45,868 nt of DNA from Caldilinea sp. CFX5 (GTDB lineage: Bacteria; Chloroflexota; Anaerolineae; Caldilineales; Caldilineaceae): assembly GCA_021405325.1 (NCBI GenBank), contig QWII01000081.1, positions 1 to 45,868 of the forward strand, in the 5' to 3' direction. Positions 1,064 to 38,965 of this stretch are shown piece by piece. Both the position numbers and the translations under genes were made by a program. The notes below the pieces were generated by a model that was not told the origin of the DNA, did not search any database, and saw only the letters and a list, made by a program, of their open reading frames with translations. Each line of letters opens with the position of its first letter. Position 1 is the first letter of the stretch.

Positions 1064-1181
1064 GGAGACACGAGGCAGGAGACACGAGACAGGAGACATA
1101 GATCGTCGATTTCTTCTGTCTTCTGACCTCTGTCTTCTATCTTTGTGTTTCCTTGCCTCGTGTCTCCTGCCTCGTGTCTCC
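1064..1181. repeat. Inverted repeat with 7-nt internal periodicity
   Basis: Arms 1064-1090 and 1155-1181 pair at 26 of 27 positions. Each arm is itself a tandem of 7-nt words (GGAGACA, CGAGGCA, GGAGACA, CGAGAC). Related words continue to the left from about 1051. It separates the STAND gene from the TPR gene. Confidence 0.85.
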
Positions 1182-1191
1182 TTGTCTTCTG

Positions 1192-2613
1192 TCACTTCCC
1201 CAACCACCTCACCACTTGCTCCAATAAAAAGGTTCGGGTCAGGTTATGGATCGCATAGCGCCGGTCGTTGAGGCCGCCGCGGGCGTCGACGAGGTTGAGG
1301 GTTACGAGTTGGTTGAGCGCGGTGCGCAGGTCGTCCAGATCCAGGTCGCCCACTTCAGCCAGGTAGCCCAGGTCGTCGCCATCGGGGCCGGCAAAGGGCA
1401 TCACCAGCAGCGCTTTGCGTTCCAAGGGATCGAGTTTAGCCCACGCTTTCTGGTAGATGTAGGTGTAGAGGTTGGTGGCCGGCTGGCTGCGCGCCTGGCG
1501 CAGGTCATAGAGAATCGATTGCAGGCCGTAGATATGGGTCTGCCCGACCACCAGGCGCAGGGCGAGCGGGTTGCCCCCCACAGTCTCGACAATGGGCAGC
1601 AATTCGGCGTCGCTGCTCATCGCCAGCACCGGCAGCCCGCGCAGCGCCGCCTCGTGGCGGATCAATTGCAGGGCATGGCATGAGCTTAATTCAGCCACCT
1701 TGTCATGGTAAAGATTGGCGATGCCAAAGAGATTCTCGCGTGCCGTGACAATGAATTTGCTCGGGTTTGCCAGCTTCTGTAAGGTGGGGAGCAGCGTTTC
1801 AATATCGATCACAGTTTCGAGGTTGTCGATCACAATAATATGGGGCAGATCCTTAAGCCGAGAGCGCAACGCCTGTTCGTAGCGCTCCGGCGCGGCGTTG
1901 GGGATCAACTGGTGGGCCAGCGCTGCCATCATCTGCTCGGCGTTCATAACCGGTTGCGGATTGCGTTCCAGCTTGCCCATAAGGCTGAGTTGCTCGCGCT
2001 GGGCGCTGATCCAGCCGATGTCGTCGACCTGGCCGGCGGCGATCAGCCGGTGAAGCAGCGCCTTGGCCAGCGTCGTCTTGCCAATACCGCCGATGCCTTC
2101 GAGGGCGATGATCCAGGGCGGGCCGTCGGTGGTTACCAGCGCTTGCAGCCGGGCCAGCGGCGCCGCCAGCCCAATCGGTTCGTTGATTAGTTCGCCACCC
2201 AATCGTTCAATCATGGTCTCCCGTTGGTGGAGCGCGGCTTGGGCGTCATGGGCGATGATCGTTTCGGTCAGCAGGGTAGTGGCCTGTCGTTGCAACACAT
2301 AGAGATGACTTTCGGAGACATTCATTCGGTTGGCAATCTGTTGGACGGTGTCGCCATCGAGGTGGCGCGCTTGTAAGAAGTTGGCTTCCGGTTCATATTT
2401 TTCCTGTAAGAGGCGCAAGCCGTCGAGTAGAAATTGATTGACGGCTAGTTTGCTGTTGCCGCCATTGCGTCGCAACAAGCGACGAAAAAGATAGAATTGG
2501 TTGAATGCTTCATGACCCTTCCCCAGGCGCTTCCAATCCTTGAGCGCCTGGTGGATGATTTCGTCAATGGATGGCGGGGATTCAGGGGATAGTGGCGAGA
2601 GTGAACTTTCCAT
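1192..2613 (-). CDS. STAND-type NTPase (NB-ARC-like) with N-terminal helix-turn-helix-like region
   Basis: 473 residues. Residues 85-115 (DTVQQIANRMNVSESHLYVL) look like a sigma-region-4-like helix-turn-helix. The NTPase core follows: P-loop GIGGIGKTT at 173-181, Walker B IIVID at 259-263, sensor-type FIVTARE at 287-293 and the STAND motif GGNPLAL at 346-352. A winged-helix-like segment covers about 390-465. STAND ATPases are ligand-gated signalling switches that usually carry a repeat sensor at the C-terminus. Here the protein stops after the winged helix and a TPR protein is encoded next downstream, so sensor and switch appear to be separate polypeptides. Partner and DNA target are unknown. 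The start ATG at 2613 is supported by AAGGAGAG just upstream (minus strand). Confidence 0.8.
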   Translation of the reverse strand: MESSLSPLSPESPPSIDEIIHQALKDWKRLGKGHEAFNQFYLFRRLLRRNGGNSKLAVNQFLLDGLRLLQEKYEPEANFLQARHLDGDTVQQIANRMNVSESHLYVLQRQATTLLTETIIAHDAQAALHQRETMIERLGGELINEPIGLAAPLARLQALVTTDGPPWIIALEGIGGIGKTTLAKALLHRLIAAGQVDDIGWISAQREQLSLMGKLERNPQPVMNAEQMMAALAHQLIPNAAPERYEQALRSRLKDLPHIIVIDNLETVIDIETLLPTLQKLANPSKFIVTARENLFGIANLYHDKVAELSSCHALQLIRHEAALRGLPVLAMSSDAELLPIVETVGGNPLALRLVVGQTHIYGLQSILYDLRQARSQPATNLYTYIYQKAWAKLDPLERKALLVMPFAGPDGDDLGYLAEVGDLDLDDLRTALNQLVTLNLVDARGGLNDRRYAIHNLTRTFLLEQVVRWLGK

Positions 2614-2658
2614 TGGCTGAACTCTCCTTGGCTTACTACGATAACCTTACGTTATTTG

Positions 2659-2688
2659 TTGACGGGTTAAGGCTAATGTGTGTATAAT
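2659..2688 (+). promoter_or_regulatory. Near-consensus promoter (TTGACG-18-TATAAT)
   Basis: TTGACG at 2659-2664 and TATAAT at 2683-2688 are separated by 18 bp on the plus strand. It points toward the DJ-1-like gene and would give a leader of about 250 nt that includes the 2756-2822 inverted repeat. The -10 sits in GTGTATAAT, also seen at 2895-2903 and on the minus strand near 37088. Confidence 0.55.
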
Positions 2689-2755
2689 GGCGTAGAATAA
2701 CATAATTTTTCGCCAATTCCAATTGTCTGAAAACTTTGTTTTTTGTCCTTTTTTA

Positions 2756-2822
2756 TTGGATAGTGGGTATGGGGTAGTGGGTATGAGTGATTGATAAGGA
2801 ATATCCAATACCCAATATCCAA
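2756..2822. repeat. Inverted repeat in the STAND / DJ-1-like divergent gap
   Basis: Arms 2756-2770 (TTGGATAGTGGGTAT) and 2808-2822 match at 14 of 15 positions. A second GTAGTGGGTAT copy follows the left arm at 2774-2784. Any reading frame extended upstream of 2949 would translate this repeat, which argues for the later start. The rest of 2614-2948 holds the two promoters and AT-rich DNA, with no gene seen. Confidence 0.75.
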
Positions 2823-2897
2823 CGAAAAATGGCAATTTGGAGCTTTTTTGGAGCTTTTCTAGAGGTTTTCTATAGATCAAAAACGCCCAACCGGGTG

Positions 2898-2903
2898 TAT
2901 AAT
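2898..2903 (+). promoter_or_regulatory. -10 element of the DJ-1-like gene
   Basis: TATAAT at 2898-2903 within GTGTATAATCGG. Transcription would start near 2910, only about 40 nt before the chosen ATG at 2949. No good -35 is visible. Confidence 0.45.
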
Positions 2904-2948
2904 CGGCTCATGCTGAACGTTAGCGAAGACCAGGAAGGGAATCGTTCG

Positions 2949-3479: not shown

Positions 3480-3731
3480 CCTGTTGGTTCCCCATCCCCG
3501 CCCATCGACTTTGTTCCTCCACCGTCACAGGTGAATCCCGCGTCACCTGTGCGTTCCCCCTGCTGCTTAAGTTTCCTGCTGTGCTGTTCGCTTCGTCATC
3601 AAACACTGTTTTTGTCATCAAATACTGTTTATTTGACAAGACTTCGCCCGTCAACTAGGCAGAATGACGGCCTTACGCTACAATAAGCGTATCGGTTCAA
3701 ACAGATGACATGCAAACAAGCACAGGATCTT

Positions 3732-4430
3732 ATGCGATTAGGTATTTTGAACGCCAATACGCCGGCGGAGGAAGCACTCTTTCAAATGCCGGAGCTGAAC
3801 AACTTCCGCACCTTCTTTGCCCAGGTTCCCCACAACCTCACCTTCGTCGAATATCGGATTACCGAAGGCGACTTTCCCTCGACCGTCACCGCCTGTGACG
3901 CCTATCTGGTCACCGGCAGCCCGCAAGGGGTCTATGACCCGGCACCGTGGATCGGCACACTGGCCGACTTTCTCCGGCAAAGTTACGCCGCCGGGCGGAA
4001 GTTGGTGGGCATCTGCTTTGGGCATCAGATCATGGCCCATGCGCTGGGCGGTCATGCCGAGAAGGCGGCGGGCTGGGGCATGGGCTTGCGCCGCTTTACC
4101 ATTGATGCCACGCCGGCTTGGATGACCACAGCGCCGACGCACGGACAACTCTACTTCTGTCATCAAGATCAGGTGGTGCGCCTACCGGTGGGCGCCCAAC
4201 GGCTGGCCGGCGACGCCTTCTGCCCCAACGCGATCTTTGTCATCGGCAACCAGGTCTTGGGCATTCAGGGCCACCCCGAATTTTCCACTGCCTTTATGGC
4301 GACGTTGATCGAGGTGCTGGGCGAACAAGCGGGGGCAACGGTGGCTGCACAGGCCGCCGCTTCGCTCCATGAGGGCGCACCGGATGGGGCGCTGGTCGCG
4401 CAGTGGGTAGTGAATTTTTTACAGCAATAA
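3732..4430 (+). CDS. Class I glutamine amidotransferase-like protein
   Basis: 232 residues from the ATG at 3732 (MRLGILNANTP), the usual family N-terminus, with AGGA at 3724-3727; an upstream ATG at 3705 would add nine residues. The GATase1 triad is visible: nucleophile Cys95 in GICFGHQ, and His181 with Glu183 in GHPEF. It is a stand-alone GMP-synthase-type amidotransferase of the kind often annotated as gamma-glutamyl hydrolase-like. No synthetase domain or partner is encoded nearby, so the acceptor is unknown. The last codons and the stop lie inside the left arm of the hairpin at 4421-4479. Confidence 0.85.
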   Translation: MRLGILNANTPAEEALFQMPELNNFRTFFAQVPHNLTFVEYRITEGDFPSTVTACDAYLVTGSPQGVYDPAPWIGTLADFLRQSYAAGRKLVGICFGHQIMAHALGGHAEKAAGWGMGLRRFTIDATPAWMTTAPTHGQLYFCHQDQVVRLPVGAQRLAGDAFCPNAIFVIGNQVLGIQGHPEFSTAFMATLIEVLGEQAGATVAAQAAASLHEGAPDGALVAQWVVNFLQQ

Positions 4431-4479
4431 GCGACAAACCCGGTTTCTGACAGAAACCGGGTTTGTCGCTTACTGCTGT
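4421..4479. terminator. 29-bp hairpin with 1-nt loop spanning a stop codon
   Basis: Arms 4421-4449 and 4451-4479 match at 28 of 29 positions with a single base between them. The amidotransferase stop codon (4428-4430) is in the left arm. No long T-run follows, so it is terminator-like in position only. Confidence 0.8.
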
Positions 4480-4489
4480 TCCCTAGAAG

Positions 4490-5701: not shown

Positions 5702-5707
5702 GAGAAA

Positions 5708-5762
5708 TTGGGTGATTTGGTGATTGGTTTGTTGCTATCGCGTCAATCACCAAATCACCCAA
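5708..5762. repeat. Perfect 19-bp inverted repeat
   Basis: Arms 5708-5726 (TTGGGTGATTTGGTGATTG) and 5744-5762, perfect, 17-nt loop. Each arm holds two GGTGATT words spaced eight bases apart. It sits in the 90-bp gap between the membrane protein and the oxidoreductase. Confidence 0.9.
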
Positions 5763-5791
5763 TCACCTGATTGTTTTAGGAGGGTACGGAC

Positions 5792-6691
5792 ATGTTAAAA
5801 ATTGGTATTCTCGGCAGTGATAACAGCCATGCCGAGCGCTTTTCCGAGTTGCTCAACCTGCCTGAACATCCCAATTTTCTGGCCGATGCCGATGCACAGG
5901 TGGTGGCAATCTGGGGGCAGGAGCCGAACCGCACGCAACAGGTGGCGCAGCAGAACCGGATCGCTACGATTGTCGATGACCCTGTAGCCATGTTTGATCT
6001 GGTCGATGCGATCATTTGTGTGACGCGTCATGGCGGGTTACACCTGGATCTGGTGCGCCCTTATGTGCAGGCGCGCGTCCCCACCTTTGTGGACAAGCCG
6101 CTGGCGATTGATCCCGATGATGCACGCACGATGGTTGCGCTGGCGGCACAAAATCGCACCCCTTTTACCTCTTTCTCCACCGTCCGCTTTAGCGCTGATA
6201 CGCAACGCTTTTGGCAACAGGCGCGGGAACTGGGCGGCGGGCGCGTCGGCAGCTATAGCGGCCCCGCCACCCGGCGCAACCCTTATGGCGGCGTTCTCTT
6301 TTATGCCATTCACAGCATCGAAATGATGTTGATGACACAGGGCGTGGGCGTCCAGTGGGTGCAGGCGCTGGAAGGGCCGGCGGTCGATGCCGCGGGCAAT
6401 GGTGCAATGGTGGCGACCTGCGCCTGGAAAGATGGCACAATGGCGACCATTGAGTTGACCGTCGATGCCGCCTACGCCTTCCGCGCGACCGCCCTGGGAC
6501 GCAACGGCGTCCACTCCGCTACCCTCAATATTGCCGATTGTTACCGCCAGGGCATGAAGCAGATCCTCACCGTTCTGCGCGGCGGTCCCAGTCCCGTATC
6601 ACCCGCCGAAATGATCGAAGCCATCCAGATCGGCGCCGCTATCGAGTTAAGCTTACAGGAGGAGCGGCGGGTGTTTTTGCATGAGGTGTAG
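5792..6691 (+). CDS. Gfo/Idh/MocA-family NAD(P)-dependent oxidoreductase
   Basis: 299 residues, with AGGAGGG at 5778-5784 fixing the ATG. The N-terminal Rossmann strand reads MLKIGILGSDNSHAERF. FVDKPLAID at about residue 98 is the family EKP-like motif, with Asp in place of Glu and the catalytic Lys retained. The C-terminal half is the alpha/beta substrate domain. At 299 residues it is shorter than the typical 330-400. Family members oxidise or reduce hydroxyls of sugars and inositols; the substrate is unknown. It is the last plus-strand gene before the convergent BTAD regulator. Confidence 0.8.
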   Translation: MLKIGILGSDNSHAERFSELLNLPEHPNFLADADAQVVAIWGQEPNRTQQVAQQNRIATIVDDPVAMFDLVDAIICVTRHGGLHLDLVRPYVQARVPTFVDKPLAIDPDDARTMVALAAQNRTPFTSFSTVRFSADTQRFWQQARELGGGRVGSYSGPATRRNPYGGVLFYAIHSIEMMLMTQGVGVQWVQALEGPAVDAAGNGAMVATCAWKDGTMATIELTVDAAYAFRATALGRNGVHSATLNIADCYRQGMKQILTVLRGGPSPVSPAEMIEAIQIGAAIELSLQEERRVFLHEV

Positions 6692-6692
6692 A

Positions 6693-6761
6693 GGTAGACA
6701 GGTAGACAGGTAAACAGGTACATAGGACGTATCTACCTGTTTACCTGTCTACCTGTTTACC
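6693..6761. terminator. 28-bp inverted repeat between convergent genes
   Basis: Arms 6693-6720 and 6734-6761 are near-perfect and made of 8-nt words (GGTAGACA, GGTAAACA). Related words run on to 6777, so the repeat tract contains the stop codon (6773-6775) of the convergent BTAD gene. The position suits a bidirectional terminator, though no T-run is present. The same words recur at 38748-38809. Confidence 0.85.
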
Positions 6762-6772
6762 TATCTACCTGT

Positions 6773-9700
6773 CTACCTTTCCAAGATACTACGGGCGCGC
6801 TGCAACAGCGGCAGATCATGCCCTTCGGTGAACCACCGGTAGCAGGCGGCGAGTTGGCGGTGGGCGTCGGCGGCGCGGGGGTCGTTTTGCCAGTGGCGAC
6901 AGAGGCTGACCAGGGTTTGCAGTTCCCACCAGCGGGCTTGCTGGCGGCGGGCGACGGTGAGCGCTTGCTGGTAACAGTCGTCCGGCGTCTGGCCCAGGAG
7001 CGTCCAGATGGCGGGGTCGTTGACTTGCGCCAACAGTTCGGCTTTGAGGCGGTAGAGTTCGGCTTCACACCAGCGGTCTTGGGTGCGTTCCAAGAGGTCA
7101 AAGGCTTCGCCCATGACGGCAATGCCGATTTCGTGCTGGCCAACCTGCCCCAGCCGCTCGGCCAGCAGACCAGCAAAGTAAGCCGCGCCCAATTCGGCCC
7201 CGGTGGCGCGGAAGAGGTCGATGCCTTCTTGCATCTGGTTCATGCCGCTTTCAAAATCGCCTTGCACCGCGACCGCCCAGCCATGTAAAAAGGTTGCTGA
7301 GGCCAGCCAGAGCGTAAAGCCGTAGGTGCGCGTAAGTTCCATTGTCGCCGCCGCCTGCCGCCGACAGCCTGCCACATCGCCCAAAAATTGATATTGCACC
7401 GTCATGTAGGTCATGGCAATGGCGCGGCTGTAGGGGTGGGCCAACGCTTCGGCACGGGTCAGGGCTTCCTGCGCCTGCCGTAGCGCCTGGAGCGGATAGC
7501 CAAGACACCAGCGCGCCCAGGCGCCGTAGCTGAGGCCGACAATGGCCGGGTCCTGCCCATAGACCAGGGCGTGGTGGGCGTGGCGTTCGCGGTCGTAGAG
7601 GGCCAAGCTCTCATCGAGATATTGTTTGGCGTCACGCAAGGCGACATTGTGAAAGAAGTGGGTGCCGGCGATGCTGTAGGCTTCGAGCAGCAATTCCGGG
7701 TTTTCTTCGGTTTGCGCCTGCGCCAGCAGATCCCTGGCCGCCGCCGTGCCCTTAGCGAGATCGGGCTTGACCTGGTAAAAGCGCCCCAAGCCCCACAGCA
7801 CTTGAAAGCGCTGTTGCGCGTCGCCCACCTGTTGGCAGAGCCGCCACGCTTCGCTAAAGGCGCGCTCGACTTCCGGCGCCGCGTACCCTTTGGTCGCCAG
7901 GAGCAACGGCCCGAGCGCGATCTGCAATGCCAGCGCTAGACGGGTCTGTTCGTCGCCGGCCGGTAACAGGGGCAAGAGCGTCTGGGCATGGGTCAGAAAG
8001 CCGCCAGCTTCTTGCACCGCACCCAAGCGATGGGCGACGGTGGCGGCGCGCTCATAGGAGCCAATGGCTTTGGCGACGAGTCCCCCCCGCTCATAGTGGT
8101 GAGCAAGCTGGTGGCTGATCTCGTCAAGCTGTGCCGCATGGTAGAATTCCAACGCCTCGCCGACCCGCCGGTGGAGTAGCCGACGCCGGATCGAACTGAG
8201 GCTCTGATAGGCGACTTCGCGTAGTTTATCATGGCTGAAGTCGTAGGCTTCCACCCCCAGGCGGTTAAAGCCCTGTTCCCGAATGATGCCATGTTGCCAG
8301 AGTTCATCCAGTCCCTGCACCAGTTCATCTTCGGTGCTTTCGCTGGCTTTGCCCAAGACCGCCGCATCAAAAGCGCGCCCGATGACGGCGGCCACCCGCG
8401 CCAGGTCATGCGCTTCGGCGGAGAGTTGGGTGAAGCGGGCTTCGATGACGGCGTGAACTTTGGGCGGCAGGGTTGGCGCACCTGGGGGTGTGCGTTCGGC
8501 TGGGGCCGCTGACGCGGTGGCCGTCGGCTTCTCTTCTTTGCCCAGGCGGGCGCGCACCATCTCGACAATAAAGAGGGGGTTGCCTTCGGTTTCGGCGTAA
8601 ATCGCACCGACGCCATTTTGGCCATCGGCCTGACCGGTTAAGTTTGCAACCAGGGTGGCGGTGTCAGCGGGGGTAAGCCGCTTTAATGTTTGCTCGTGTA
8701 GTAAATCGGTTTGGCGCAACTGGGCAAGAAAGGCGAGCAAGGCCTGTTCCTGTTGCATTTCCTCCTGACGCACGGTGGCGAGGATCAGCACTTTCGCCGC
8801 CGAGTCAAAGCGCAGGAGATAGTGCAGCCAGGCGAGTGTATCCTCGTCGCACCACTGGATGTCATCAAGCAGGAGGAGTAGGGTGGGCTGGCCGTGCAGC
8901 GTCAAGCGGGCCAGTGCTTCAAAGAGGCGCTGCCGCTGCCAGTTTTCTGCCAGCGTCGGCGGTTGGGCGACTCCCTTCTGCTCAGTCAACAGTTCGGGCA
9001 GTAGACGGGACGCCTCGCTGCGCCAGACGACATCGACCGCTTGCCGGCTCTTCTGAAAAATCGGCGCCCGCAGCCACTCCTGCACCGGGGCCAGGGCAAA
9101 GCGACCGCCGGCTGCATAGCAGTGGGCGGTGGCGGTGACAACCCCTTGGCGCGCCGCCCAGTCGAGAAATTCTTCGGCCAGGCGTGTCTTGCCGATGCCG
9201 GCCTCGCCGGAGAGCAGCAGCAGCCGCGGTTGTCCGGTCTGGGTCTGGCGCCAGAGCGCTTGTAAGGCTTCCCAATCCGTCTGCCGACCCACCAGCGGCG
9301 CAGCGGTGCGTAGGGGGGCAATGGCCGGTTGGGTCTCTTCCAGGTTGAGCAACCGCTCGTAGAGGCCCTGCGTCACCGGCCCCGGTTCCACGCCCAGTTC
9401 CCGCACCAGAATGGTGGCGCAGTTGTGATAGACCCGCAGCGCCGTAGCCCGATCGCCTTGCAGGGCATAGAGTTGCATAAGGCGGGCGTAGCTCTCCTCG
9501 CGCAGGGGGTCGCTTTGCAACAGGCGACGGCTGTACTCAATGGCGGTGCGATAGTCGCGCTGCTGTTCGGCCAGAGTGCTTGCTTGTTCGAGCGCACCCA
9601 GATAGCGCTCCTGCCACTGTTCGCGGTCGCGCAGGATCCAGTCATCATAAAACCCTTTGAGCAATTCCCCGCGGTATAAGCTCACGGTGGTTTTGAGTAG

Positions 9701-10075: not shown

Positions 10076-10133
10076 CTACACCCGCAACGTGACCGATTTG
10101 TCTTTCACCTGTACCAGACAGTCATGCGCCTAT

Positions 10134-10139: not shown

Positions 10140-10185
10140 CTCGAAAACAGTGGATCAAACACAAGTCGGAAATGGTGGATAGTGC

Positions 10186-10301
10186 AGGACTTACGCAAGA
10201 CGCCGGGCACCCAGCGGGTTCCCGCGGCATCCTGCCGGCCTGCCGCCAGGGATGGCGCGGGAACCCACTGGCTGCCCAGATTCCCGTCTTGCGTAAGTCC
10301 T
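10186..10301. repeat. Compound inverted repeat, REP-like element copy 1
   Basis: Outer arms 10186-10202 and 10285-10301 are perfect over 17 bp. Inner arms 10206-10226 and 10256-10276 match at 19 of 21. The core resembles 18771-18847, and the end word CTTGCGTAAGTCCT recurs at 20587-20600. The rest of the 10076-10510 gap holds TGGATAGTGGATGG near 10305-10318 facing CTATCCACTATCCACC near 10405-10420, a further loose inverted pair. No gene is seen. Confidence 0.8.
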
Positions 10302-10510
10302 ATAGTGGATAGTGGATGGTCATGTACGATCAGTAGAGCGCAACACACTCAGAAGCGCACAGCGTGACTCTAGACTACGCGACTACATGACTGCGGACGA
10401 TTGACTATCCACTATCCACCCAAAATTCCACATTTGACAAAGTAGCCGCGCACCACATATAGTAAGGTAGATTCATCATTTATCCTCACGCGTACTATTG
10501 GAGTTACTAC

Positions 10511-11088: not shown

Positions 11089-11140
11089 AGTCCGCAGTCC
11101 AGAGTCCAAAGTCGATGCGCCGGACTCTGGACTGCGGACT
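11089..11140. repeat. Perfect 19-bp inverted repeat
   Basis: Arms 11089-11107 (AGTCCGCAGTCCAGAGTCC) and 11122-11140, perfect, 14-nt loop. The arm is a degenerate 7-nt tandem (AGTCCGC, AGTCCAG, AGTCC). It lies just before the enolase-type gene. Confidence 0.9.
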
Positions 11141-12320: not shown

Positions 12321-12540
12321 CCCTCCCAGCCTCCCCAACTTGGGGCTAACCTTTACCCACATCTTTTTGCCAGAGGTAGCGGGCCGGGGAAGAGTGCCGG
12401 GGACTGCCCAGAGAAACTCACAAAATCAGATGCCGTTTCTGGGCAGTCCCCGGCACTCTTCCCCATGTACTTGTGGGTAAAGGTAAGAGCTTGGGGAGGG
12501 GACCGTTGCTCCTCCCCCAAACTGGGGGAGGCTGGGAGGG
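12321..12540. repeat. Triple nested inverted repeat, 220 bp
   Basis: Three collinear arm pairs sit one inside the next: 12321-12336 with 12525-12540 (16 bp), 12349-12361 with 12472-12484 (13 bp), and 12386-12412 with 12438-12464 (27 bp), each perfect. The innermost loop is 25 nt. It fills the gap between the enolase-type and ThDP genes. Confidence 0.9.
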
Positions 12541-22628: not shown

Positions 22629-22650
22629 GCCGAGGGTTCAAACCCTCGGC
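22629..22650. repeat. Short perfect inverted repeat inside the sugar-transport operon
   Basis: GCCGAGGGTT (22629-22638) and AACCCTCGGC (22641-22650) with a 2-nt loop, between the binding-protein gene and the first permease. It could attenuate permease expression relative to the binding protein. Confidence 0.6.
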
Positions 22651-22689
22651 TACCCTCAGCCGTCGCTCCGCGACTGACAGGAACAGAGT

Positions 22690-24493: not shown

Positions 24494-24562
24494 CGTGCTA
24501 CGTGATTCGTGCTGCGTTCCCTGAGCTTGTCGAAGGGAACGCAGCACGAATCACGTAGCACG
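24494..24562. repeat. Perfect 28-bp inverted repeat with TGAGCTTGTCGAA loop
   Basis: Arms 24494-24521 and 24535-24562 are perfect. The 13-nt loop is TGAGCTTGTCGAA, the same motif as the loop of the otherwise unrelated hairpin at 33938-33998. It lies between the permease and the oxidoreductase. Confidence 0.92.
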
Positions 24563-28243: not shown

Positions 28244-28310
28244 TTCCGTGTTCCTTCTATCCGTGTTTAGTCATTTCAACCAACTAAACACGGATAGAAG
28301 GAACACGGAA
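28244..28310. repeat. Perfect 27-bp inverted repeat
   Basis: Arms 28244-28270 and 28284-28310, perfect, 13-nt loop. It lies between the oxidoreductase and the sarcosine-oxidase-like gene. The arm word ACACGGATAG and a GGAACACGGA word resemble parts of the 29535-29599 repeat (ACACAGATAG, GGAACACGGA). Confidence 0.92.
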
Positions 28311-29534: not shown

Positions 29535-29599
29535 AGTAAACACAGATAGGGAGGAACACGGATGCTTTTTATCTGGGTTCCTCCCTATCTGTGTTTACT
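29535..29599. terminator. Perfect 23-bp inverted repeat between convergent genes
   Basis: Arms 29535-29557 and 29577-29599, perfect, 19-nt loop ending in a T-rich GCTTTTTATC segment. It separates the convergent oxidase and aldo/keto reductase genes, so a bidirectional terminator is plausible. Confidence 0.85.
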
Positions 29600-29615
29600 A
29601 TGGTGGTCATTTCGC

Positions 29616-31647: not shown

Positions 31648-31661
31648 AGGTTTAGCCTGTT

Positions 31662-31712
31662 GAATTACGAGTTACGAATTACGGCTCATATACAACTCGT
31701 AACTCGTAATTC
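31662..31712. repeat. Inverted repeat, period 8, inside the BMP operon
   Basis: Arms 31662-31676 (GAATTACGAGTTACG) and 31698-31712, perfect. Further ACTCGTAA/AATTCATA words extend the tract to about 31725. It lies between the binding-protein gene and the hydrolase gene, where it could limit read-through. Confidence 0.8.
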
Positions 31713-31729
31713 ATAACTCGTAACTCTAT

Positions 31730-32857: not shown

Positions 32858-32931
32858 AGAAACGTTTGTCTCCTTTGGTAAAAGTAACTGCGATGTTGAA
32901 ATACGATGATGGCTTTTAGTAATCATACCGC

Positions 32932-32984
32932 TCGCAGCCAGTCCGTGACTGGCGATCATCGCCAGTCACGGACTGGCTGCGAGC
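32932..32984. repeat. Perfect 26-bp palindrome with 1-nt loop
   Basis: Arms of 26 bp (CTCGCAGCCAGTCCGTGACT, continuing GGCGAT) flank a single base; coordinates are accurate to one base. It begins 7 bp after the stop of the second permease and precedes the binding-protein gene on the minus strand. In a BMP operon such a hairpin could stabilise the upstream or downstream transcript. Confidence 0.88.
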
Positions 32985-32990
32985 AGGTTT

Positions 32991-33908
32991 TTAGGAACGC
33001 ATCCCCTCAAAGACGGTGCTGAGACCGGCCGGCATGGTATAGCCGGGGCGTTTCCGTAGAGCCAGCAAGACGCCCAGTGTCAGCAGATAGGGCAACATAT
33101 CAAGCAGGAACGGCGAAATGGGTGCGCCGCGTGCTTGCAATTGCAACTGGAAGGCCAGCGCGCCGCCAAAGAGTAACGCCCCCCAGACGGCTCGTACCGG
33201 ACTCCACGCCGCAAAGATGACCAGCGCCACCGCAATAAAGCCGCGCCCGGCAGTCATCTGTTCCGTCCAGACGCCGGTGTAACCGAGCGATAGGTGGGCG
33301 CCGCCCAGCCCAGCCAACAGACCGCCGATAAAGACGGCTTGATATTGCAAGTAGGTTGGCTGCAAGCCGGCAGCGTAAGCGACTGTTTTATCTTCACCCA
33401 CGGTGCGCAACGACAGCCCCCACCGCGTCTGTGTCAATAACCAGGATAAGAGGAACGCGATGGGAACCACAGCGTAGATCAGGACATCATGGTTGAAAAG
33501 CACACGACCGACCACTGGCAGATCAGCCAACGCGGGAATCGGCCAGTTGGGCAGGCCATCGACCAGTTGTCCAACATAGGGGCGACCGATGAGTGCGCTC
33601 AGCCCAATGCCGAGAAAACCCAAGGTTAACCCGCTTGCCAGTTGGTTGGCGCCCCGTGTAATGACCAGATAGGCAAAGAGCAGGTGAAACAGTCCACCCG
33701 CCAGCATCGCCGCCAACAAGCCGACAAAGGGATTCTCCGTTTGGTGCGTTGCGGCAAAGCCCACCGACGCCCCGATCAACATGGTGCCTTCGACGCCCAA
33801 GTTAATCACCCCGGCCCGTTCACTGATCACTTCCCCCAGCGCCGCATAAAGGACGGATGTCCCCGCTCCGATAGCGCCAGTCAATACACCAATGATAAAA
33901 CTTAACAC
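32991..33908 (-). CDS. BMP-type ABC transporter permease (second subunit)
   Basis: 305 residues with about eight membrane helices. The N-terminus reads GTSVLYAALGEVISERAGVI then NLGVEGTMLIGA, the NLGxEGxMLxGA signature of BPD_transp_2 (RbsC-like) permeases in nucleoside-type importers. A cytoplasmic loop TRWGLSLRTVGEDKTVAYAA likely contacts the ATPase. Cotranscribed with the other permease across a 93-bp gap filled by a hairpin. Confidence 0.92.
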   Translation of the reverse strand: MLSFIIGVLTGAIGAGTSVLYAALGEVISERAGVINLGVEGTMLIGASVGFAATHQTENPFVGLLAAMLAGGLFHLLFAYLVITRGANQLASGLTLGFLGIGLSALIGRPYVGQLVDGLPNWPIPALADLPVVGRVLFNHDVLIYAVVPIAFLLSWLLTQTRWGLSLRTVGEDKTVAYAAGLQPTYLQYQAVFIGGLLAGLGGAHLSLGYTGVWTEQMTAGRGFIAVALVIFAAWSPVRAVWGALLFGGALAFQLQLQARGAPISPFLLDMLPYLLTLGVLLALRKRPGYTMPAGLSTVFEGMRS

Positions 33909-33937
33909 AAGCTACCCCTTCTTGTATGTTCGTTGGT

Positions 33938-33998
33938 ATGTTCGTTGGTATGTTCGTTGGTTGAGCCTGTCGAAACCAACGAACATACCAACGAACAT
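33938..33998. repeat. Perfect 25-bp inverted repeat with 12-nt tandem units and GAGCCTGTCGA loop
   Basis: Arms 33938-33962 and 33974-33998 are perfect. The left side carries three tandem copies of TATGTTCGTTGG (about 33925-33960), of which two pair. The 11-nt loop GAGCCTGTCGA lies within TTGAGCCTGTCGAAA and matches the 24494-24562 loop apart from one C/T change. It sits between the two permease genes. Confidence 0.92.
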
Positions 33999-34001
33999 GC
34001 C

Positions 34002-35063
34002 CTACGCCTTTTTCGCCCGAAAAAAATTCCCCAGCACAATAAAGAGAATTAGCGCCATGAGAATATTCACAGTGGAAAAGGGAACATTCTGCGTAATCTG
34101 CAAGGTGTCGCCGCCCAGGGCGATAACCGCCAGCAGGAAGGCCATGCCAACGGCGGCAAAGGGGCTGTGACCGGCCAGCCAACTGATCAAAAAGCCGACA
34201 TAACCATAGCCCGGCGAAAAGGCGGGGCGCAAGCGCCCTTGAATCGCCATTACTTCGCCGACGCCGGCCAACCCGGCCAGCCCGCCGGCGATGATCATGC
34301 TCAAGATCAAGTAGCGGGCAATGGGGAAGCCATGCCGGAGCGCCGCCTCCGGGTTGCCGCCGATGGCGCGCATGGCGTAGCCCCAACGGGTGTAGCGTAG
34401 CAGGAAAAAGATCAAAACGACGGCCAGCAACCCCAAGGGCAAGACGAGATGTACACGCGTGCCGCCAAACTGGGGCAGGAGAAAGGCGTCGGCAAAGCGC
34501 ACGGTTTGGGGGAAGTTGGCGCTCTCCGGGTCGCGCCAGGCGCCATAGATAAAGTAGTTGACAAACTGAAGCGCCACATAGTTGAGCAGCAGCGTCGCGA
34601 TCACCTCGTTGAGCCACCCCTTGGCGCGCAGATAGGCCGGGATCGCCGCCCATAGGCCGCCGCCGATAAAGCCCAGCAACAACACAGCGGTCAACGCTAA
34701 TGGCCGCGGCAGATCGCCTAAGGAGAGCGCTCCCCACGTCGCCAGCCATGCGCCCATGTAAATTTGCCCTTCGCCACCCACATTGACCAATCCCAAACGC
34801 GCCGGCAACAGCACCGCCAGCGCGCAGAGCAGCAATGGGATCAGCTTGACCAGCACTTCCGACCAGCCGTAGCGACTGCCGAGAGTCTGACGGAAAATAT
34901 CACTATAGGCCCGCAGCGGGTCTTTGCCAAAGAGCAGCAAAACGACGCCGAAACAGAGCAGCGCCGTCACCATGATCAAGAGCGGGCGCACATAAGGCAG
35001 GAAGAGCGTGCGTGCGGTGCGCGGGGATTGTTCCGGTAGCACCAGACTTTGTGGCGTTGCCAT
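34002..35063 (-). CDS. BMP-type ABC transporter permease (first subunit)
   Basis: 353 residues with about nine to ten membrane helices after a cytoplasmic N-terminus. The RbsC-like signature appears as ARLGLVNVGGEGQIYMGAWL. A cytoplasmic loop TRWGYAMRAIGGNPEAALRH corresponds to the ATPase-contact region. It begins 5 bp after the ATPase stop, so translation is probably coupled. It forms the channel with the 32991-33908 protein. Confidence 0.92.
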   Translation of the reverse strand: MATPQSLVLPEQSPRTARTLFLPYVRPLLIMVTALLCFGVVLLLFGKDPLRAYSDIFRQTLGSRYGWSEVLVKLIPLLLCALAVLLPARLGLVNVGGEGQIYMGAWLATWGALSLGDLPRPLALTAVLLLGFIGGGLWAAIPAYLRAKGWLNEVIATLLLNYVALQFVNYFIYGAWRDPESANFPQTVRFADAFLLPQFGGTRVHLVLPLGLLAVVLIFFLLRYTRWGYAMRAIGGNPEAALRHGFPIARYLILSMIIAGGLAGLAGVGEVMAIQGRLRPAFSPGYGYVGFLISWLAGHSPFAAVGMAFLLAVIALGGDTLQITQNVPFSTVNILMALILFIVLGNFFRAKKA

Positions 35064-35068
35064 CGTTC

Positions 35069-36640
35069 TTATTCTCCCCCTGTCATCAGATGCCCGACCC
35101 GATGGGCGTCATACTCGTTAGGCTGTAAGCGCCCTACAATCTGGCCGTGATAGAGGACCAGCAAGCGGTCGCTCAAGGTAAACAACTCGTCCATATCCTC
35201 CGAAAAGAGCAACACAGCGGCGCCTTCCTGCCGACACCGCAGCAACAGTTGGCGCATCGCTTCGGCGTTCGCCACATCCAACCCACGGGCCGGATAGTAG
35301 GCCAGCAAAACCTTGGGCTTGCGCGCCACTTCACGCGCCACCACCACTCGTTGCAAATTGCCGCCGGATAGCGTCTCCACCGGCGCCGCCAACCGGGGCG
35401 CTTTGGCCGCAAAGACAGTGCCCAACGCCTGCGCCGCCGTCTTTTGCACCCCGGCCCAGTTCATCACCAGCCCGCCAAAGCGCGTATGCTGCGCCTGTTC
35501 ACCAAGAATCATATTCTCGGCCACAGTCATGCCACGGATCGCACCCATCTGCAAGGCATCTTCCGGGATACAAGCGACGCCGGTGGTGCGGATGACGGCG
35601 GGCGACCAGTAGGTTGCATTCTCGCTGTTGAGGAAGCGTTCGCCCCGCTCCAGCAAGAGCAGCCCAAGAATGGCATCGCCCAGTTCGCGCTGACCGTTGC
35701 CCGAAACCCCGGCCACCCCAACAATTTCGCCGCCAAAGAGTTGCAAATCAATCCCCGCGAGGCGACTGCCGCCTTGCTGGGGGGCGGCGGAAACTTGCCG
35801 TAATTCCACCAGCGCGCGCCGGTCAGCCCCGCGCTCGGGCGACAGTTGACCGTTGGTAGCTGTTTCGTTTGTTAACGAATGGGGTTGTAGGTCAGGTGCT
35901 TTGGTGGGTGTCTTGCCCAACATCATCTGAATAATCGCCGCCGGTGTGGCGTCGGCGCGTGTTAGTATACCCGCGACCGCACCTTGACGCAAGACAGTGA
36001 TGCGGTCGGCAATCGCCATCACTTCCGGTAACTTGTGGGTGATAAAGAGGATGGCATAGCCATCGGCCTTGAGGCGTTGTACAACCTGGAAGAAGCCCTC
36101 TACCTCCTGGGGCGCCAGAACGCTGGTCGGCTCATCGAAGATCAAGATACGGGCGTCACTGAGCAGCACCTTGAGAATTTCCAATCGTTGGCGTTCGCCA
36201 ATCGCCAGGGCGCCGACGCGCCGTTGCAGGTCAATTGGTAACCCATACCGTTCCGCCAGCGCCTGCACCCGCTGCTCGATCACCGGATATTGCAGTCGGC
36301 CCCGCATATCGGGCAGAAAGAGGGCAATGTTTTCCAGCACGGTCATGGCCGGCACCAGGGTGAAATTTTGAAAGACCATACCGATGCCCAGTTGGCGACC
36401 GACCTGGGGCGAGGGAATGGTCACCGGTTCGCCCTTGAGCCGGATTTCGCCGGCGCTGGGCTGGTGAAAGCCGTAGAGCGACTTCATGAGCGTACTCTTG
36501 CCGGCACCGTTCTCGCCCAAGACGGCGTGAACTTCACCGGCATAGACCGCCAGATCAATCGCCTGGTTGGCGACAAAGGCGCCAAACCGTTTGGTCAAGC
36601 CGCGCGTCTCTAATAGGGGCTTTGCTGATAGCTGTTCCAT
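35069..36640 (-). CDS. BMP-type ABC transporter ATP-binding protein, two ABC domains
   Basis: 523 residues from the ATG at 36640, backed by GAGGAGG; a frame extended to 36880 would overlap the upstream gene. ABC domain 1 has Walker [10 protein letters not shown] (42-50), signature-like [13 protein letters not shown] and Walker [13 protein letters not shown] domain 2 (about 255-523) has a degenerate P-loop [11 protein letters not shown] but a good signature [12 protein letters not shown]. Duplicated ABCs with a weak second P-loop are usual for RbsA/NupO-type proteins. Walker B of the second half reads [12 protein letters not shown], lacking the usual Asp-Glu pair. It energises the importer encoded downstream. 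Confidence 0.92.
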
Positions 36641-36644
36641 GCCG

Positions 36645-37052
36645 CTATGCGCCTCCTCTGTTTTTGCTTGCCATGTAGGCGCGCCAGCCGCCATAGTGGG
36701 TGATCTCAACGCCGGTCGCACACAGATAAGCCTCACCGAGGACGCCCAGCATACTTTCGCCTGTATCCAGGGTAATCCGCCCGATGCAGAGACCGGCCGG
36801 CTCCTGTTGCAAGATGGTAGCAATCGCCGCCGCCGGCAATTCCCAGATTTCCAGGGCGATAGAGCGTCCGCCCTCGGCAAAACGCATCATCGCCGGGTGG
36901 CGATCCTGGATCGTCCACAGGCGATAGGCGGCATCGGTGGCGGCTTCACGTACAAAGCGGGCGCCTACATTTAACAGATTTTGATTCAGTTCCAAACCGC
37001 GCATTAGTGTACCGTTTACAGCAAGATAGACAGTTGTCACAGAACTCTCCAT
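36645..37052 (-). CDS. Stand-alone domain like the allophanate hydrolase C-terminal (AtzF) domain
   Basis: 135 residues from the ATG at 37052 ([19 protein letters not shown]). The sequence shows [18 protein letters not shown], then [38 protein letters not shown] and a C-terminal [14 protein letters not shown]. This is the order seen in the C-terminal, gamma-glutamylcyclotransferase-like domain of allophanate hydrolase. The amidase half is absent. It ends 4 bp before the ATPase start, whose ribosome site lies within its last codons, so the two are tightly coupled. Assignment is by recognition of the domain pattern, not by search. The activity of the free domain is unknown. Confidence 0.65.
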
Positions 37053-37079
37053 TTTTTGGGATTGTGGTAGGTAGCGACC

Positions 37080-37085
37080 ATTATA
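37080..37085 (-). promoter_or_regulatory. Promoter -10 of the BMP operon
   Basis: TATAAT on the minus strand at 37080-37085, within GTGTATAATGG, 28 nt upstream of the first gene. The -35 is weak. The remainder of the 37053-37352 gap shows no gene or strong repeat; GAAGGAGAAG just before 37353 is the ribosome site of the plsC-like gene. Confidence 0.5.
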
Positions 37086-37352
37086 CACGATCTAGCAGCA
37101 GAATGGATGTTTTTTGATCTTACAAAAGAGCATATCCCATCGCCTATAGCGGATCTGCACAATGTTTTCTATACAAAAGCGCTATTTTTGCCCAATCATT
37201 ACAAAGATTTAAGCGTTTTTCGGTATAAGCAATAGTGCTCCAGGGTGAAGGGCCGTAAATAAACACCTCTACCTGATGCATTTGCGTTTCCATTACAGTG
37301 GTGGCAATATTCATGAAAATCAGCATCACACGCTTTTTTGTGAAGGAGAAGT

Positions 37353-38108: not shown

Positions 38109-38129
38109 ACGAGAACTTACCTGATCTGA

Positions 38130-38176
38130 GCGCGCCGGCTGCCGACATCCTTGTCGGTAGCCGGCCGGCGTTCCCA
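38130..38176. repeat. GC-rich inverted repeat, REP-like
   Basis: GCGCCGGCTGCCGACATCC is followed by TTGTCGGTAGCCGGCCGGCG and TTCCC, making an imperfect stem (GCCGGCTGCCGACA against TGTCGGTAGCCGGC). The GGCGTTCCC end resembles the REP-like elements at 10186 and 18771. Confidence 0.6.
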
Positions 38177-38198
38177 GGTTGTTGCGCAGCTTCTCAAA

Positions 38199-38233
38199 AC
38201 AAAAGGCCGTCACGCTAAGTGACGGCCTTTTGT
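38199..38233. terminator. Bidirectional intrinsic terminator
   Basis: ACAAAAGGCCGTCAC (38199-38213) and its complement (38219-38233) flank the 5-nt loop GCTAA. A-run on one side and T-run on the other terminate both convergent genes. This is the clearest conventional terminator in the window. Confidence 0.92.
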
Positions 38234-38239
38234 TTCAAT

Positions 38240-38614
38240 CTATATTTCTTCCAATTCATCAACTTCTACTTTACTATGTCCATTTTGACTAAGTCCGTTT
38301 TGACCAAGCAGACGCAACAACTCACGAATCACATCATCAATGCGGCGCTTATAACGCAACAATTCGCGGCGACACTCGACCTCTGCCGGTGATTCGGTCT
38401 TAAACGCACGCAATGATTCCTCGAGTTCCACATCGATCCGGGCCTCATATTTGTTGAGGATGCGGCCCCGTAAGAACTCACGCATTAATTTGGCTACGGT
38501 TGTGTCATAGTCGGTCAAATCGTTATGCAGATCTACCAGGCGATCCGATGCAATCGCCGGCATCGGCATCGCCCGCAAAGTCTCCCAAGCTCGGTTTAAT
38601 TTTCGTCGTTGCAC
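38240..38614 (-). CDS. Small helical protein of unknown function
   Basis: About 124 residues if started at the GTG at 38614, which has AGAGGA upstream; a TTG at 38644 or ATG at 38566 are alternatives. The product is charged and helical (REFLRGRILNKYEARIDVEL; CRRELLRYKRRIDDVIRELL) with an acidic C-terminus. It has no membrane segment or known motif. It is preceded by the twin GGTATACC operator-like site, so it seems specifically regulated. Convergent with plsC. Confidence 0.55.
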   Translation of the reverse strand: MQRRKLNRAWETLRAMPMPAIASDRLVDLHNDLTDYDTTVAKLMREFLRGRILNKYEARIDVELEESLRAFKTESPAEVECRRELLRYKRRIDDVIRELLRLLGQNGLSQNGHSKVEVDELEEI

Positions 38615-38664
38615 GATTCCTCTACATGAGCAAATGGTTAGCAAGGTTGATCGGGCAGAAAGGG

Positions 38665-38700
38665 TGGTATACCAAAATTATAGCAGCTTTTGGTATACCA
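38665..38700 (-). promoter_or_regulatory. Twin GGTATACC palindromes flanking a -10 box
   Basis: Arms 38665-38677 (TGGTATACCAAAA) and 38688-38700 are perfect inverted copies, each containing the palindrome GGTATACC, 26 bp centre to centre. The minus-strand TATAAT at 38677-38682 lies between them. This geometry suits a repressor dimer pair controlling the 38240-38614 gene. Confidence 0.55.
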
Positions 38701-38747
38701 CAAAAAAACGGAAGGAAAGAATTGCAGTATAGGTAGATAGGGAAATA

Positions 38748-38809
38748 GGGAAACAGGTAGACAGGTAAATAAGTTGTTGCCACCATGTTTACCTGTCTAC
38801 CTGTTTCCC
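38748..38809. repeat. Perfect 22-bp inverted repeat, period 8
   Basis: Arms 38748-38769 and 38788-38809, perfect, 18-nt loop. Words GGTAGACA and GGTAAA repeat those at 6693-6761, 32 kb away, making this the only pair of hairpins with related arms. It lies between the small helical gene and recA, upstream of the recA promoter. Confidence 0.9.
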
Positions 38810-38846
38810 TGTCTACCTGTTTACCTACTTTCCGTTCTCATCCAAT

Positions 38847-38875
38847 TTGACTTGCTAGAACACATGAGCTATACT
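38847..38875 (+). promoter_or_regulatory. recA promoter with LexA-box-like spacer
   Basis: TTGACT at 38847-38852 and TATACT at 38870-38875 with an exact 17-bp spacer. The spacer ends in GAACACATGAGC (38858-38869), close to the Gram-positive type SOS box core (GAACRNRYGTTC) in its first nine positions but not in the last three. LexA control of recA is therefore likely. Confidence 0.6.
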
Positions 38876-38906
38876 GTGACAACATGCGATTGTGTCGGTA
38901 GAGCCT

Positions 38907-38965
38907 GATAGTAGCACCCGGCGGATGTTACACTCTGTTATAGCACACTGCCGGGTGCTACTATC
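38907..38965 (+). repeat. 16-bp inverted repeat in the recA leader
   Basis: Arms 38907-38922 (GATAGTAGCACCCGGC) and 38950-38965, perfect, 27-nt loop. It lies within the roughly 130-nt 5' leader of recA and would form a stem in the mRNA. Confidence 0.8.

What the first reader, a model, noticed from the sequence alone, without database searches (positions are those of the whole stretch)
1064..38965. Nearly every intergenic gap carries its own long, near-perfect inverted repeat of unrelated sequence
At least 17 gaps hold inverted repeats (centres near 1122, 2789, 4450, 5735, 6727, 10243, 11114, 12425, 24528, 28277, 29567, 31687, 32958, 33968, 38778, 38936 and the short 22640). Arms are 15-29 bp, mostly perfect, loops 1-43 nt. 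Unlike REP/MITE families the arms are nearly all different in sequence, so they look locally generated rather than spread by copying. They occur between convergent genes, inside operons and in leaders. Most lack T-runs, so simple terminators do not explain them. A process that builds or renews palindromes in place would explain this, for example template-switch correction of quasi-palindromes. This is the strongest candidate here for an undescribed phenomenon.
Basis: partly seen in the sequence, partly recalled or inferred. Interest (0 to 1): 0.78.

Follow-up and report, generated by a model that had tools for sequence, protein, structure and literature searches.

The report
Mixed families of intergenic DNA palindromes
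The gaps between genes in this Chloroflexota bacterium really are rich in long mirror-image sequences, but they are mostly single copies of many different spreading repeat families plus a few known signals; one unusual class, built from 7-8-letter words, has arms that match each other better than chance copying would give.

Summary
The inverted repeats are real: 16 non-overlapping ones score >=14, against a mean of 0.05 in 40 shuffles; about 17 of 28 gaps carry one, counted by hand. RecA places the window near Caldilineaceae. 'Unrelated arms' is largely a sampling effect: in 588 kb of relative G122, 71 of 113 palindromes fall into 20 multi-copy families (shuffled 0.8); about ten of 18 window palindromes, several marginally, resemble families in relatives. 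Known kinds are mixed in: REPINs (12 of 30 Y1-transposase loci carry the same palindrome on both sides, control 1 of 600), a bidirectional terminator (38197-38235) and, at 22640, Acido-Lenti-1 RNA. The odd remainder is a class whose arms are tandem 7- or 8-nt words (40 of 181 arms, shuffled 0.9): arms of one copy pair better than arms of different copies (15.2 vs 9.0, 0 of 20,000 permutations), and one orthologous gap keeps the words but not their order, both arms changed. That fits template switching on top of dispersal; selection for pairing is not excluded, a stricter test is weak, and no close strains were available.

The parts
1047..1198 (.). P01: word palindrome (7-nt words AGACAGG/AGACACG), arms 1063-1091 and 1154-1182
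   Evidence: word array with inverted partner; five similar places in G333 (E 0.002 to 0.14), three of them on both strands
2752..2825 (.). P02: imperfect word palindrome (GTAGTGGGTATGG / CCAATACCCAATATCC), divergent gap
   Evidence: read directly; not among the 16 hits; best match in relatives not above the best shuffle
4421..4479 (.). P03: 29-bp arms, loop 1; arm resembles the palindrome beside a REP-associated transposase in G402 (L377)
   Evidence: arm score 11.5 against shuffled maximum 9.0
5707..5763 (.). P04: word palindrome, 20-bp perfect arms, 8-nt words (TTGGTGAT)
   Evidence: clusters with the G122 ATTGGTTG family, marginal
6684..6783 (.). P05: word palindrome, 8-nt words GGTAGACA/GGTAAACA, between convergent genes
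   Evidence: similar places in G333 and G401 (best E 1.4e-13), 19 of them fetched
10185..10300 (.). P06: long imperfect palindrome with outer ends CAGGACTTACGCAAGACG / CGTCTTGCGTAAGTCC, MITE-like by appearance only
   Evidence: no match above shuffles in the relatives sampled
10290..10420 (.). Further word palindrome in the same gap (array 10396-10419, CTATCCAC, inverted partner upstream; start approximate)
   Evidence: partner score 14; sequence
11089..11140 (.). P07: word palindrome, 19-bp perfect arms, 7-nt words AGTCC-NN
   Evidence: 3 similar places in relatives, shuffled mean 0.07
12386..12464 (.). P08: 27-bp perfect arms; core shared with a G122 family and, marginally, with palindromes beside a REP-associated transposase in G401 (L368)
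   Evidence: one search score 11.0 against shuffled maximum 10.0
22630..22675 (+).
   Evidence: Rfam RF01687, 48.4 bits, gathering 37
24494..24562 (.). P09: 29-bp perfect arms (7-nt words CGTGCTA CGTGATT CGTGCTG) around loop GAGCTTGTCGA
   Evidence: whole palindrome no match in plasmids; core weakly (E 0.1 to 6 in the rows listed) in 46 plasmid records, several places per record in some sphingomonads
28244..28310 (.). P10: 28-bp perfect arms, ACACGGAT words, inside-out relative to G122 copies
   Evidence: (4 places, shuffled 0)
29535..29599 (.). P11: ACACGGAT-family palindrome between convergent genes
   Evidence: (matches in G345, G122); marginal
31661..31726 (.). P12: word palindrome, 7-nt words GAATTAC/GAGTTAC, inside operon
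   Evidence: G345 match 94% over 34 bp, none above shuffles; orthologous gaps of G333, G122, G398 hold other palindromes
32930..32984 (.). P13: 27-bp perfect arms, loop 1; each arm self-complementary (GCCAGTC/GACTGGC), REPIN-like; overlaps the start of the Bmp ORF
   Evidence: sequence; no transposase-linked match above shuffles
33926..34001 (.). P14: palindrome of 12-nt units (ATGTTCGTTGGT) around loop GAGCCTGTCGA, between two permease genes; the same gap in G333 is shorter and has none
38197..38235 (.). P15: bidirectional intrinsic terminator between convergent genes (stem GGCCGTCAC/GTGACGGCC with A and T runs)
   Evidence: read directly
38664..38701 (.). P16: two TGGTATACCA palindromes as an inverted pair, upstream of orf134
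38730..38838 (.). P17: word palindrome, 8-nt words GGTAGACA/GGGAAACA, in the orf134-recA gap
   Evidence: (6 places, shuffled 0)
38907..38965 (.). P18: hairpin in the recA leader, between a promoter-like site and recA

Best explanation
The palindromes are a mixture. Caldilineaceae-type genomes carry many co-resident populations of short palindromes, each at low density, so a 46-kb window shows one or two of each and they look unrelated. Shown: (i) REPIN populations beside REP-associated tyrosine transposases (RAYTs) in relatives; (ii) a MITE-like ACACGGAT element whose core is a long palindrome; (iii) bidirectional terminators; (iv) one known RNA motif; (v) palindromes whose arms are arrays of 7- or 8-nt words. 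Inferred: classes i and ii spread by copying (a single-strand HUH transposase for i, unknown for ii and v). For class v, and partly ii, the two arms of each copy are kept alike, most likely by template switching between arms at the replication fork, possibly helped by selection for a hairpin; tandem words reshuffle by slippage and the change is copied to the other arm. The gaps are where such sequences are tolerated, with a bias to 3' ends.
For: Families: 71 of 113 palindromes in G122 and 26 of 54 in G345 fall in multi-copy families, shuffled arms 0.8 and 0. REPIN/RAYT: PF01797 in 7 of 8 genomes; same palindrome on both flanks at 12 of the 30 loci returned (36 matches listed), control 1 of 600; of the 12, nine proteins were scanned and all nine match NF047646, two (L361, L367) over the curated cut-off and seven below it. 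ACACGGAT: in 72 doublets the arms of one copy differ at 2.78 of 31 sites, re-paired arms 3.95 (lowest of 2000 permutations 3.54). Word class: internal periods 7 and 8 in 25 and 15 of 181 arms, shuffled 0.3 and 0.6, other periods at most 1 each. Word arrays found without regard to pairing have an inverted partner in 10 of 11 (window), 38 of 86 (G122), 10 of 32 (G345), 14 of 19 (G333) and 8 of 15 (G401), against 1 of 11, 2 of 86, 0 of 32, 0 of 19 and 0 of 15 at places 700 bp away (both arms of one palindrome can count as two arrays). True halves of 21 GGTAGACA copies pair at 15.2, re-paired halves at 9.0, 0 of 20,000 permutations. G122 and G398 hold at one aligning orthologous place two perfect palindromes of the same GACGG words in different order. 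Eleven of 11 non-aligning orthologous gap pairs (five gaps) with a palindrome in both genomes have unrelated arms.
Against: In G333, the best-sampled of the nearest relatives, only 2 of 53 palindromes fall in a family within 262 kb; that is 3% of its genome, and by whole-genome search one of three tested had 11 other places and two had none. P06, P13, P16 and P18 have no family. With register and strand free only 3 of 21 GGTAGACA copies match themselves better than the best of 20 others, mean 16.1 vs 13.1, and only 6 of 72 ACACGGAT copies are closer to their own arm than to any other arm. Five of 19 GGTAGACA places have no family pair of score >=10. In two of four G122 word clusters same-copy pairing is not better than chimaeras, and the cluster of 38 that carries the excess is chained, so part of its cross pairs join unlike words. 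ACACGGAT position 28 disagrees (G against A) within 41 of 72 copies. Loop likeness does not separate the classes: 3 of 25 word pairs and 11 of 79 other pairs exceed the threshold. One palindrome is conserved in place with the same arms in G122 and G398. Many centres fall inside long ORFs: 30 of 113 in G122, 26 of 54 in G345, 4 of 48 in G333, 1 of 16 in the window (the ORF mask is crude). The window's own genome was not available.
Confidence: 0.7

Rival explanations
1. One reading: the palindromes are built and renewed in place from local sequence by template switching; dispersal plays no part.
For: Copy-specific arms with shared words only; same words, new order on both arms at one orthologous place; unrelated arms in 11 of 11 non-aligning orthologous gap pairs from five gaps.
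Against: Dispersed families; fixed loop and conserved flanks in the G402/G345 ACACGGAT element; transposase-linked families; two pairs of TATTGGG word palindromes in G122 also share loops.
Confidence: 0.1
2. They are transcription terminators or mRNA 3'-end stabilisers; selection for a stem explains arms that match and change together.
For: Convergent gaps are over-represented and divergent ones under-represented: G333 18 convergent, 16 tandem, 2 divergent palindromes over 23, 79, 18 gaps; G122 29, 41, 8 over 63, 160, 55. 22 of 277 palindromes have an A-run in the outer left arm and a short loop, as does 38197-38235.
Against: None of the 36 terminator-like sites predicted in 1-40000 overlaps the listed palindromes (the scan also misses 38197-38235, whose T-run lies inside the stem). 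In the window only 38197-38235 shows the T-run on reading; several others lie inside operons or in divergent gaps. Compensatory point changes do not easily give the same word-level rearrangement in both arms.
Confidence: 0.15
3. Only ordinary REPIN/MITE families with no arm correction; same-copy similarity reflects shared ancestry of whole elements.
For: Families and RAYTs; conservative self-versus-best-other test mostly negative; a palindrome conserved in place.
Against: Independent decay predicts same-copy arms no closer than other arms; observed 2.78 vs 3.95 mismatches and 15.2 vs 9.0 pairing. Word order, loops and flanks differ between GGTAGACA copies.
Confidence: 0.25

Closest known systems
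REPINs and REP-associated tyrosine transposases (PMC3116915: abstract, outline and section 13 read; PMC3733652: passages read, which report GTAG repeats in Chloroflexi)
   Same: Inverted doublets, several families per genome, each beside its own RAYT; bias to convergent and unidirectional gaps.
   Different: None of the 12 transposase-flanking families found here looks like a 7-8-nt word array (by inspection); word palindromes have copy-specific arms.
Heptamer direct repeats: TAACTGA of Beggiatoaceae and Cyanobacteria (PMC4679880, passages read); cyanobacterial STRR (recalled)
   Same: Short intergenic tandem words of 7 nt, mixed variants of one word.
   Different: Those are direct repeats, 169 sets and one inverted set; here inverted pairing is the rule in the window (10 of 11) and common in relatives, and 8-nt words occur too.
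Quasi-palindrome correction / replication template switching (PMC8794818: abstract and start of introduction read; PMC6649704: passages read; E. coli and yeast papers seen only in the listing; van Noort 2003 seen only as a citation)
   Same: Can create perfect stems in one step and change both arms together.
   Different: Here inferred from paralogues and one orthologous place, not from reconstructed single events; combined with dispersed word families.
MITEs (general features recalled)
   Same: ACACGGAT element in G402/G345: about 150 bp, repeated with conserved flanks; CCTAACC/GGTTAGG ends legible in some of 13 copies.
   Different: No target-site duplication beyond chance at the palindrome ends; no cognate transposase identified.

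Membership tests
REPIN/RAYT | Same REP or REPIN on both sides of a RAYT gene | tested here: met
   12 of 30 Y1 loci in relatives, control 1 of 600; nine of the 12 proteins scanned, all match NF047646, two over the cut-off. Not testable for the window's own genome.
REPIN/RAYT | Window palindromes belong to a RAYT-flanking family | tested here: inconclusive
   2 of 16 window palindromes (4421-4479, 12386-12464) exceed all 60 shuffles; the other 14 do not.
REPIN/RAYT | Word palindromes flank a RAYT on both sides | tested here: not met
   None of the 12 matched families listed is a 7/8-nt word array (by inspection).
MITE (ACACGGAT element) | Target-site duplication | tested here: not met
   Identical flanks of 2-9 nt at chance level in 72 copies, offsets 0-3; the outer ends of the larger unit were not tested.
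MITE (ACACGGAT element) | Repeated unit in many copies with conserved sequence beyond the palindrome | tested here: met
   (G402 and G345 copies)
Intrinsic terminator | GC-rich stem followed by a T-run | tested here: not met
   No predicted terminator overlaps the listed palindromes; by direct reading only 38197-38235 has the T-run, inside its arm, and is a terminator.
Heptamer direct-repeat arrays (TAACTGA, STRR) | Tandem 7-nt words | tested here: met
   Arrays of period 7 and 8: G122 60 and 26, shuffled 2 and 0; window 5 and 6, shuffled 0. Periods 6, 9 and 12 are also raised in G122 (47, 22, 49), as codon structure would give
Heptamer direct-repeat arrays (TAACTGA, STRR) | One orientation, not inverted pairs | tested here: not met
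   Inverted partners in 10 of 11 (window) down to 10 of 32 (G345) arrays
Template-switch correction | Matched change of both arms in one lineage, one arm ancestral | tested here: inconclusive
   Best case: G122/G398 at about 83% identity, same words, different order, both palindromic; the G402/G398 ACACGGAT case is ambiguous; ancestral state unknown
Template-switch correction | Arms of one copy more alike than arms of different copies | tested here: met
   the stricter test is mostly negative

The most novel reading that the evidence does not exclude
Caldilineaceae carry a self-renewing class of 'word palindromes': a small shared vocabulary of 7-8-nt words spreads between gaps, and at each site the inverted partner arm is written in place by template switching, so every copy has its own word order, a closely matching partner arm and an unrelated loop, and gaps exchange or reshuffle their palindromes over species time.
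Probability: 0.25. Interest if true: 0.72.

Novelty: new variant of a known kind. Interest (0 to 1): 0.42.

Why it matters
It shows that a striking 'every gap has its own palindrome' pattern can come from many co-resident repeat populations, and it isolates one class (7-8-nt word palindromes) for which arm-to-arm renewal is a testable hypothesis. If renewal is real, these genomes would be a natural bacterial system for measuring how template switching builds and maintains hairpins outside the laboratory.

Tried and rejected
Own genome: not held, so copy number in the window's species could not be counted. Species name: nearest RecA about 83% over most of its length (86-88% on fragments), family level only. 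Plasmid collection with the whole 24528 palindrome: no match at E <= 0.01; with its core, weak matches only. Close congener: the genus of G333 holds only itself; the G122 group is about 79-89% identical and most gaps do not align. Simple terminators as the main reading. Strict self-versus-best-other test: mostly negative, reported. Association of palindromes in orthologous gaps (odds ratio 3.0, p 0.036, 112 non-independent pairs): not relied on, confounded by gap length. Counting only non-aligning gaps would have hidden conserved cases; the 16 aligning cases were therefore checked: 9 rows, 6 distinct pairs, have a palindrome in both genomes, of which one has the same arms, two the same vocabulary or family with different arms, three unrelated arms. 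First array count crashed and was redone with equal windows. First ORF extraction of transposases read the wrong strand for the minus-strand loci and was redone. In print: the searches listed no paper on inverted heptamer/octamer word palindromes; only five papers were opened, in part, and subscription papers are mostly not held.
Full report
Observation. An ungapped inverted-repeat search (match +1, mismatch -3, loop up to 60) finds 16 non-overlapping pairs of score >=14 in the window, 15 of >=16 and 10 of >=20; 40 dinucleotide shuffles give means of 0.05, 0 and 0. Two more palindromes, 38197-38235 and 38664-38701, were not on the list. Counting gaps of 30 bp or more by hand from ORF and Pfam calls, about 17 of 28 hold one, the two weak ones included. 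Among 80 recA-centred loci from many phyla no other has more than one pair >=20, but by pairs >=16 per 10 kb one Clostridiaceae locus comes close (2.9 against 3.3).

Where it comes from. No whole genome is held for the window. RecA (39015-40130) is closest to Caldilineaceae genomes. Parts of the ABC operon 31730-36880 are syntenic in G333 and G122, and orf134 lies beside recA in six relatives. I used 15 samples including the window, about 1.56 Mb in all; the largest are G122 (588 kb), G345 (280 kb), G333 (262 kb) and G401 (168 kb). Palindromes >=16 per 10 kb: window 3.3, G333 1.5, G122 and G345 1.2, G401 0.4.

Families. Within G122, 71 of 113 palindromes fall in 20 families by arm similarity (58 in 16 at a stricter cut), shuffled arms 0.8; G345 26 of 54 (17 at the stricter cut); G401 3 of 14; G333 2 of 53; window 4 of 16. 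G333 is sampled at 3%; a whole-genome search with one G333 contig found 11 other places for one of its three palindromes and none for the other two. Searching six close genomes with the window's palindromes found many places in G333 and G401 for 6684-6783 and 38730-38838 and five weak ones in G333 for 1063-1182; two of the six genomes gave no match at all. Local comparison with 1.6 Mb of relatives puts 6727, 11114, 28277 and 38778 above shuffles and 29567 marginally; the other 13 of 18 arms are not clearly above. Adding, about ten of 18 have some support, several marginal.

REPINs. PF01797 is found in 7 of 8 genomes. At 12 of the 30 loci returned the same palindrome lies on both sides of the gene, against 1 of 600 random segments, the arrangement used to find REPs beside RAYTs in PMC3116915 (section 13). 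Nine of the 12 proteins were scanned; all match NF047646, REP-associated tyrosine transposase, two over the curated cut-off and seven below it; L356, without flanking palindromes, is an IS200/IS605 transposase. Two of 16 window palindromes, 4421-4479 and 12386-12464, resemble these flanking arms beyond all 60 shuffles, the second narrowly. GTAG-type REPs in Chloroflexi are already in print (PMC3733652, passage).

The ACACGGAT element. Three genomes give 80, 83 and 79 matches, both strands counted and 40 candidates scored in each. In 72 doublets the two arms of one copy differ at 2.78 of 31 sites on average; re-paired arms differ at 3.95, never below 3.54 in 2000 permutations; columns 16, 17, 18 and 21 mostly change together on both arms. 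Against full correction, column 28 disagrees (G against A) within 41 of 72 copies, and only 6 of 72 copies are closer to their own arm than to any other arm (9 ties). Eleven single-arm or degenerate copies were found. There is no target duplication at the palindrome ends. In G402 and G345 many copies share loop and flanks and sit in a unit of about 150 bp, read from 13 copies, so it is copied as a whole. Window palindromes 28277 (inside-out) and 29567 carry the same words.

Word palindromes. Of 181 non-terminator arms of 16 nt or more, 25 have an internal period of 7 and 15 of 8; shuffles give 0.3 and 0.6. Arrays of these words, found without regard to pairing, have an inverted partner in 10 of 11, 38 of 86, 10 of 32, 14 of 19 and 8 of 15 cases in window, G122, G345, G333 and G401, against 1, 2, 0, 0 and 0 at shifted places (both arms of one palindrome can count as two arrays). 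The GGTAGACA/GGGAAACA family was followed at 19 of the places listed plus the two window copies. Fourteen of the 19 have a family palindrome of score >=10 and five do not; word order differs from copy to copy, and in the paired copies the partner arm repeats that copy's order. True halves pair at 15.2 on average, re-paired halves at 9.0, 0 of 20,000 permutations; 200 random G333 positions score 3.3. Outside the masked arms the copies share one 19-bp match, probably unmasked words. On word arrays the same kind of test gives, at score >=12, 22 of 56 against 86 of 1504 in G122, 4 of 21 against 3 of 134 in G345 and 7 of 10 against 5 of 24 in G333; two of four G122 clusters show no excess and the largest is chained. 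When register and strand are left free the excess shrinks to 16.1 against 13.1, and only 3 of 21 copies beat the best of the other 20. Loops are shared in 3 of 25 word pairs and 11 of 79 other pairs, so loops do not separate the classes, and some word palindromes (TATTGGG in G122) are probably copied as units.

Orthologous gaps. The gap between the isochorismatase-like and Bmp genes holds four unlike palindromes in the window, G333, G122 and G398; another gap holds unlike ones in G175, G002, G401 and G122. Over 112 non-aligning orthologous gap pairs (not independent), 11 pairs from five gaps have a palindrome in both genomes, and in none are the arms alike. Among 16 cases where the alignment runs through a palindrome, six distinct pairs have one in both genomes: one with the same arms (the TGATTCCGGGAATCGGCCA REPIN-like element of G122 and G398), two with the same vocabulary or family but different arms, three unlike. 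The most telling is G122/G398: the flanks align at about 83%, and both genomes have a palindrome of GACGG words whose order differs, so both arms changed. The G402/G398 ACACGGAT pair can be read as a deletion in one arm and a matching base change in the other, but the alignment is ambiguous. Between the two permease genes the window has a 93-bp gap with a palindrome where G333 has about 45 bp and none.

Position. Palindromes outside long ORFs lie mostly in convergent and unidirectional gaps: G333 18 convergent, 16 tandem, 2 divergent over 23, 79 and 18 gaps; G122 29, 41 and 8 over 63, 160 and 55. Many centres fall inside long ORFs by this crude mask: 30 of 113 in G122, 26 of 54 in G345, 4 of 48 in G333, 1 of 16 in the window. 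A 3'-end bias is published for REPs (PMC3733652) and expected of terminators, of which 38197-38235 is one.

Conclusion. Shown: excess, families, RAYT linkage, periods 7 and 8, same-copy arm matching on average, turnover. Inferred: template switching as the cause, slippage of words, and the way word palindromes reach new gaps.

Noticed in passing
window 22630-22675 (+): Acido-Lenti-1 RNA (Rfam RF01687) lies between a solute-binding protein gene and a permease gene of a sugar-type ABC transporter.
   Followed up: partly
window 42820-43728 (+): An amidohydrolase-2 gene is interrupted by an in-frame TAG at 43246-43248; the two halves match complementary parts of the Pfam profile. Pseudogene, sequencing error or recoding was not examined.
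   Followed up: no
family of G333: Many Caldilineaceae genomes give two long recA matches, and in several assemblies contigs end inside recA.
   Followed up: no
window 38240-38644 (-): orf134, divergent from recA, is conserved beside recA in six relatives (69-78% identity) but has no Pfam match.
   Followed up: partly
window 38907-38965: Perfect 16-bp hairpin in the recA leader downstream of a promoter-like site; G401 has a different hairpin close to the recA start.
   Followed up: partly
window 24523-24533 and 33963-33973: Two palindromes with different arms share the loop GAGCYTGTCGA; the core also occurs at several places in some sphingomonad plasmids (weak E-values).
   Followed up: partly
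L189 5-165 (G333): An imperfect palindrome with 72-nt arms and a 17-nt loop, much longer than the rest, with a word-like inner part.
   Followed up: no
L187, L198, L201, L205 (G333): G333 has unusually long perfect bidirectional terminator-like palindromes (A-run, stem and T-run all inside 21-33-bp arms).
   Followed up: no
L163 4101-4167 (G122) and L226 4512-4576 (G398): A REPIN-like element conserved in place upstream of an isochorismatase-like gene; its arms resemble those found beside transposases in L360 and L382.
   Followed up: partly
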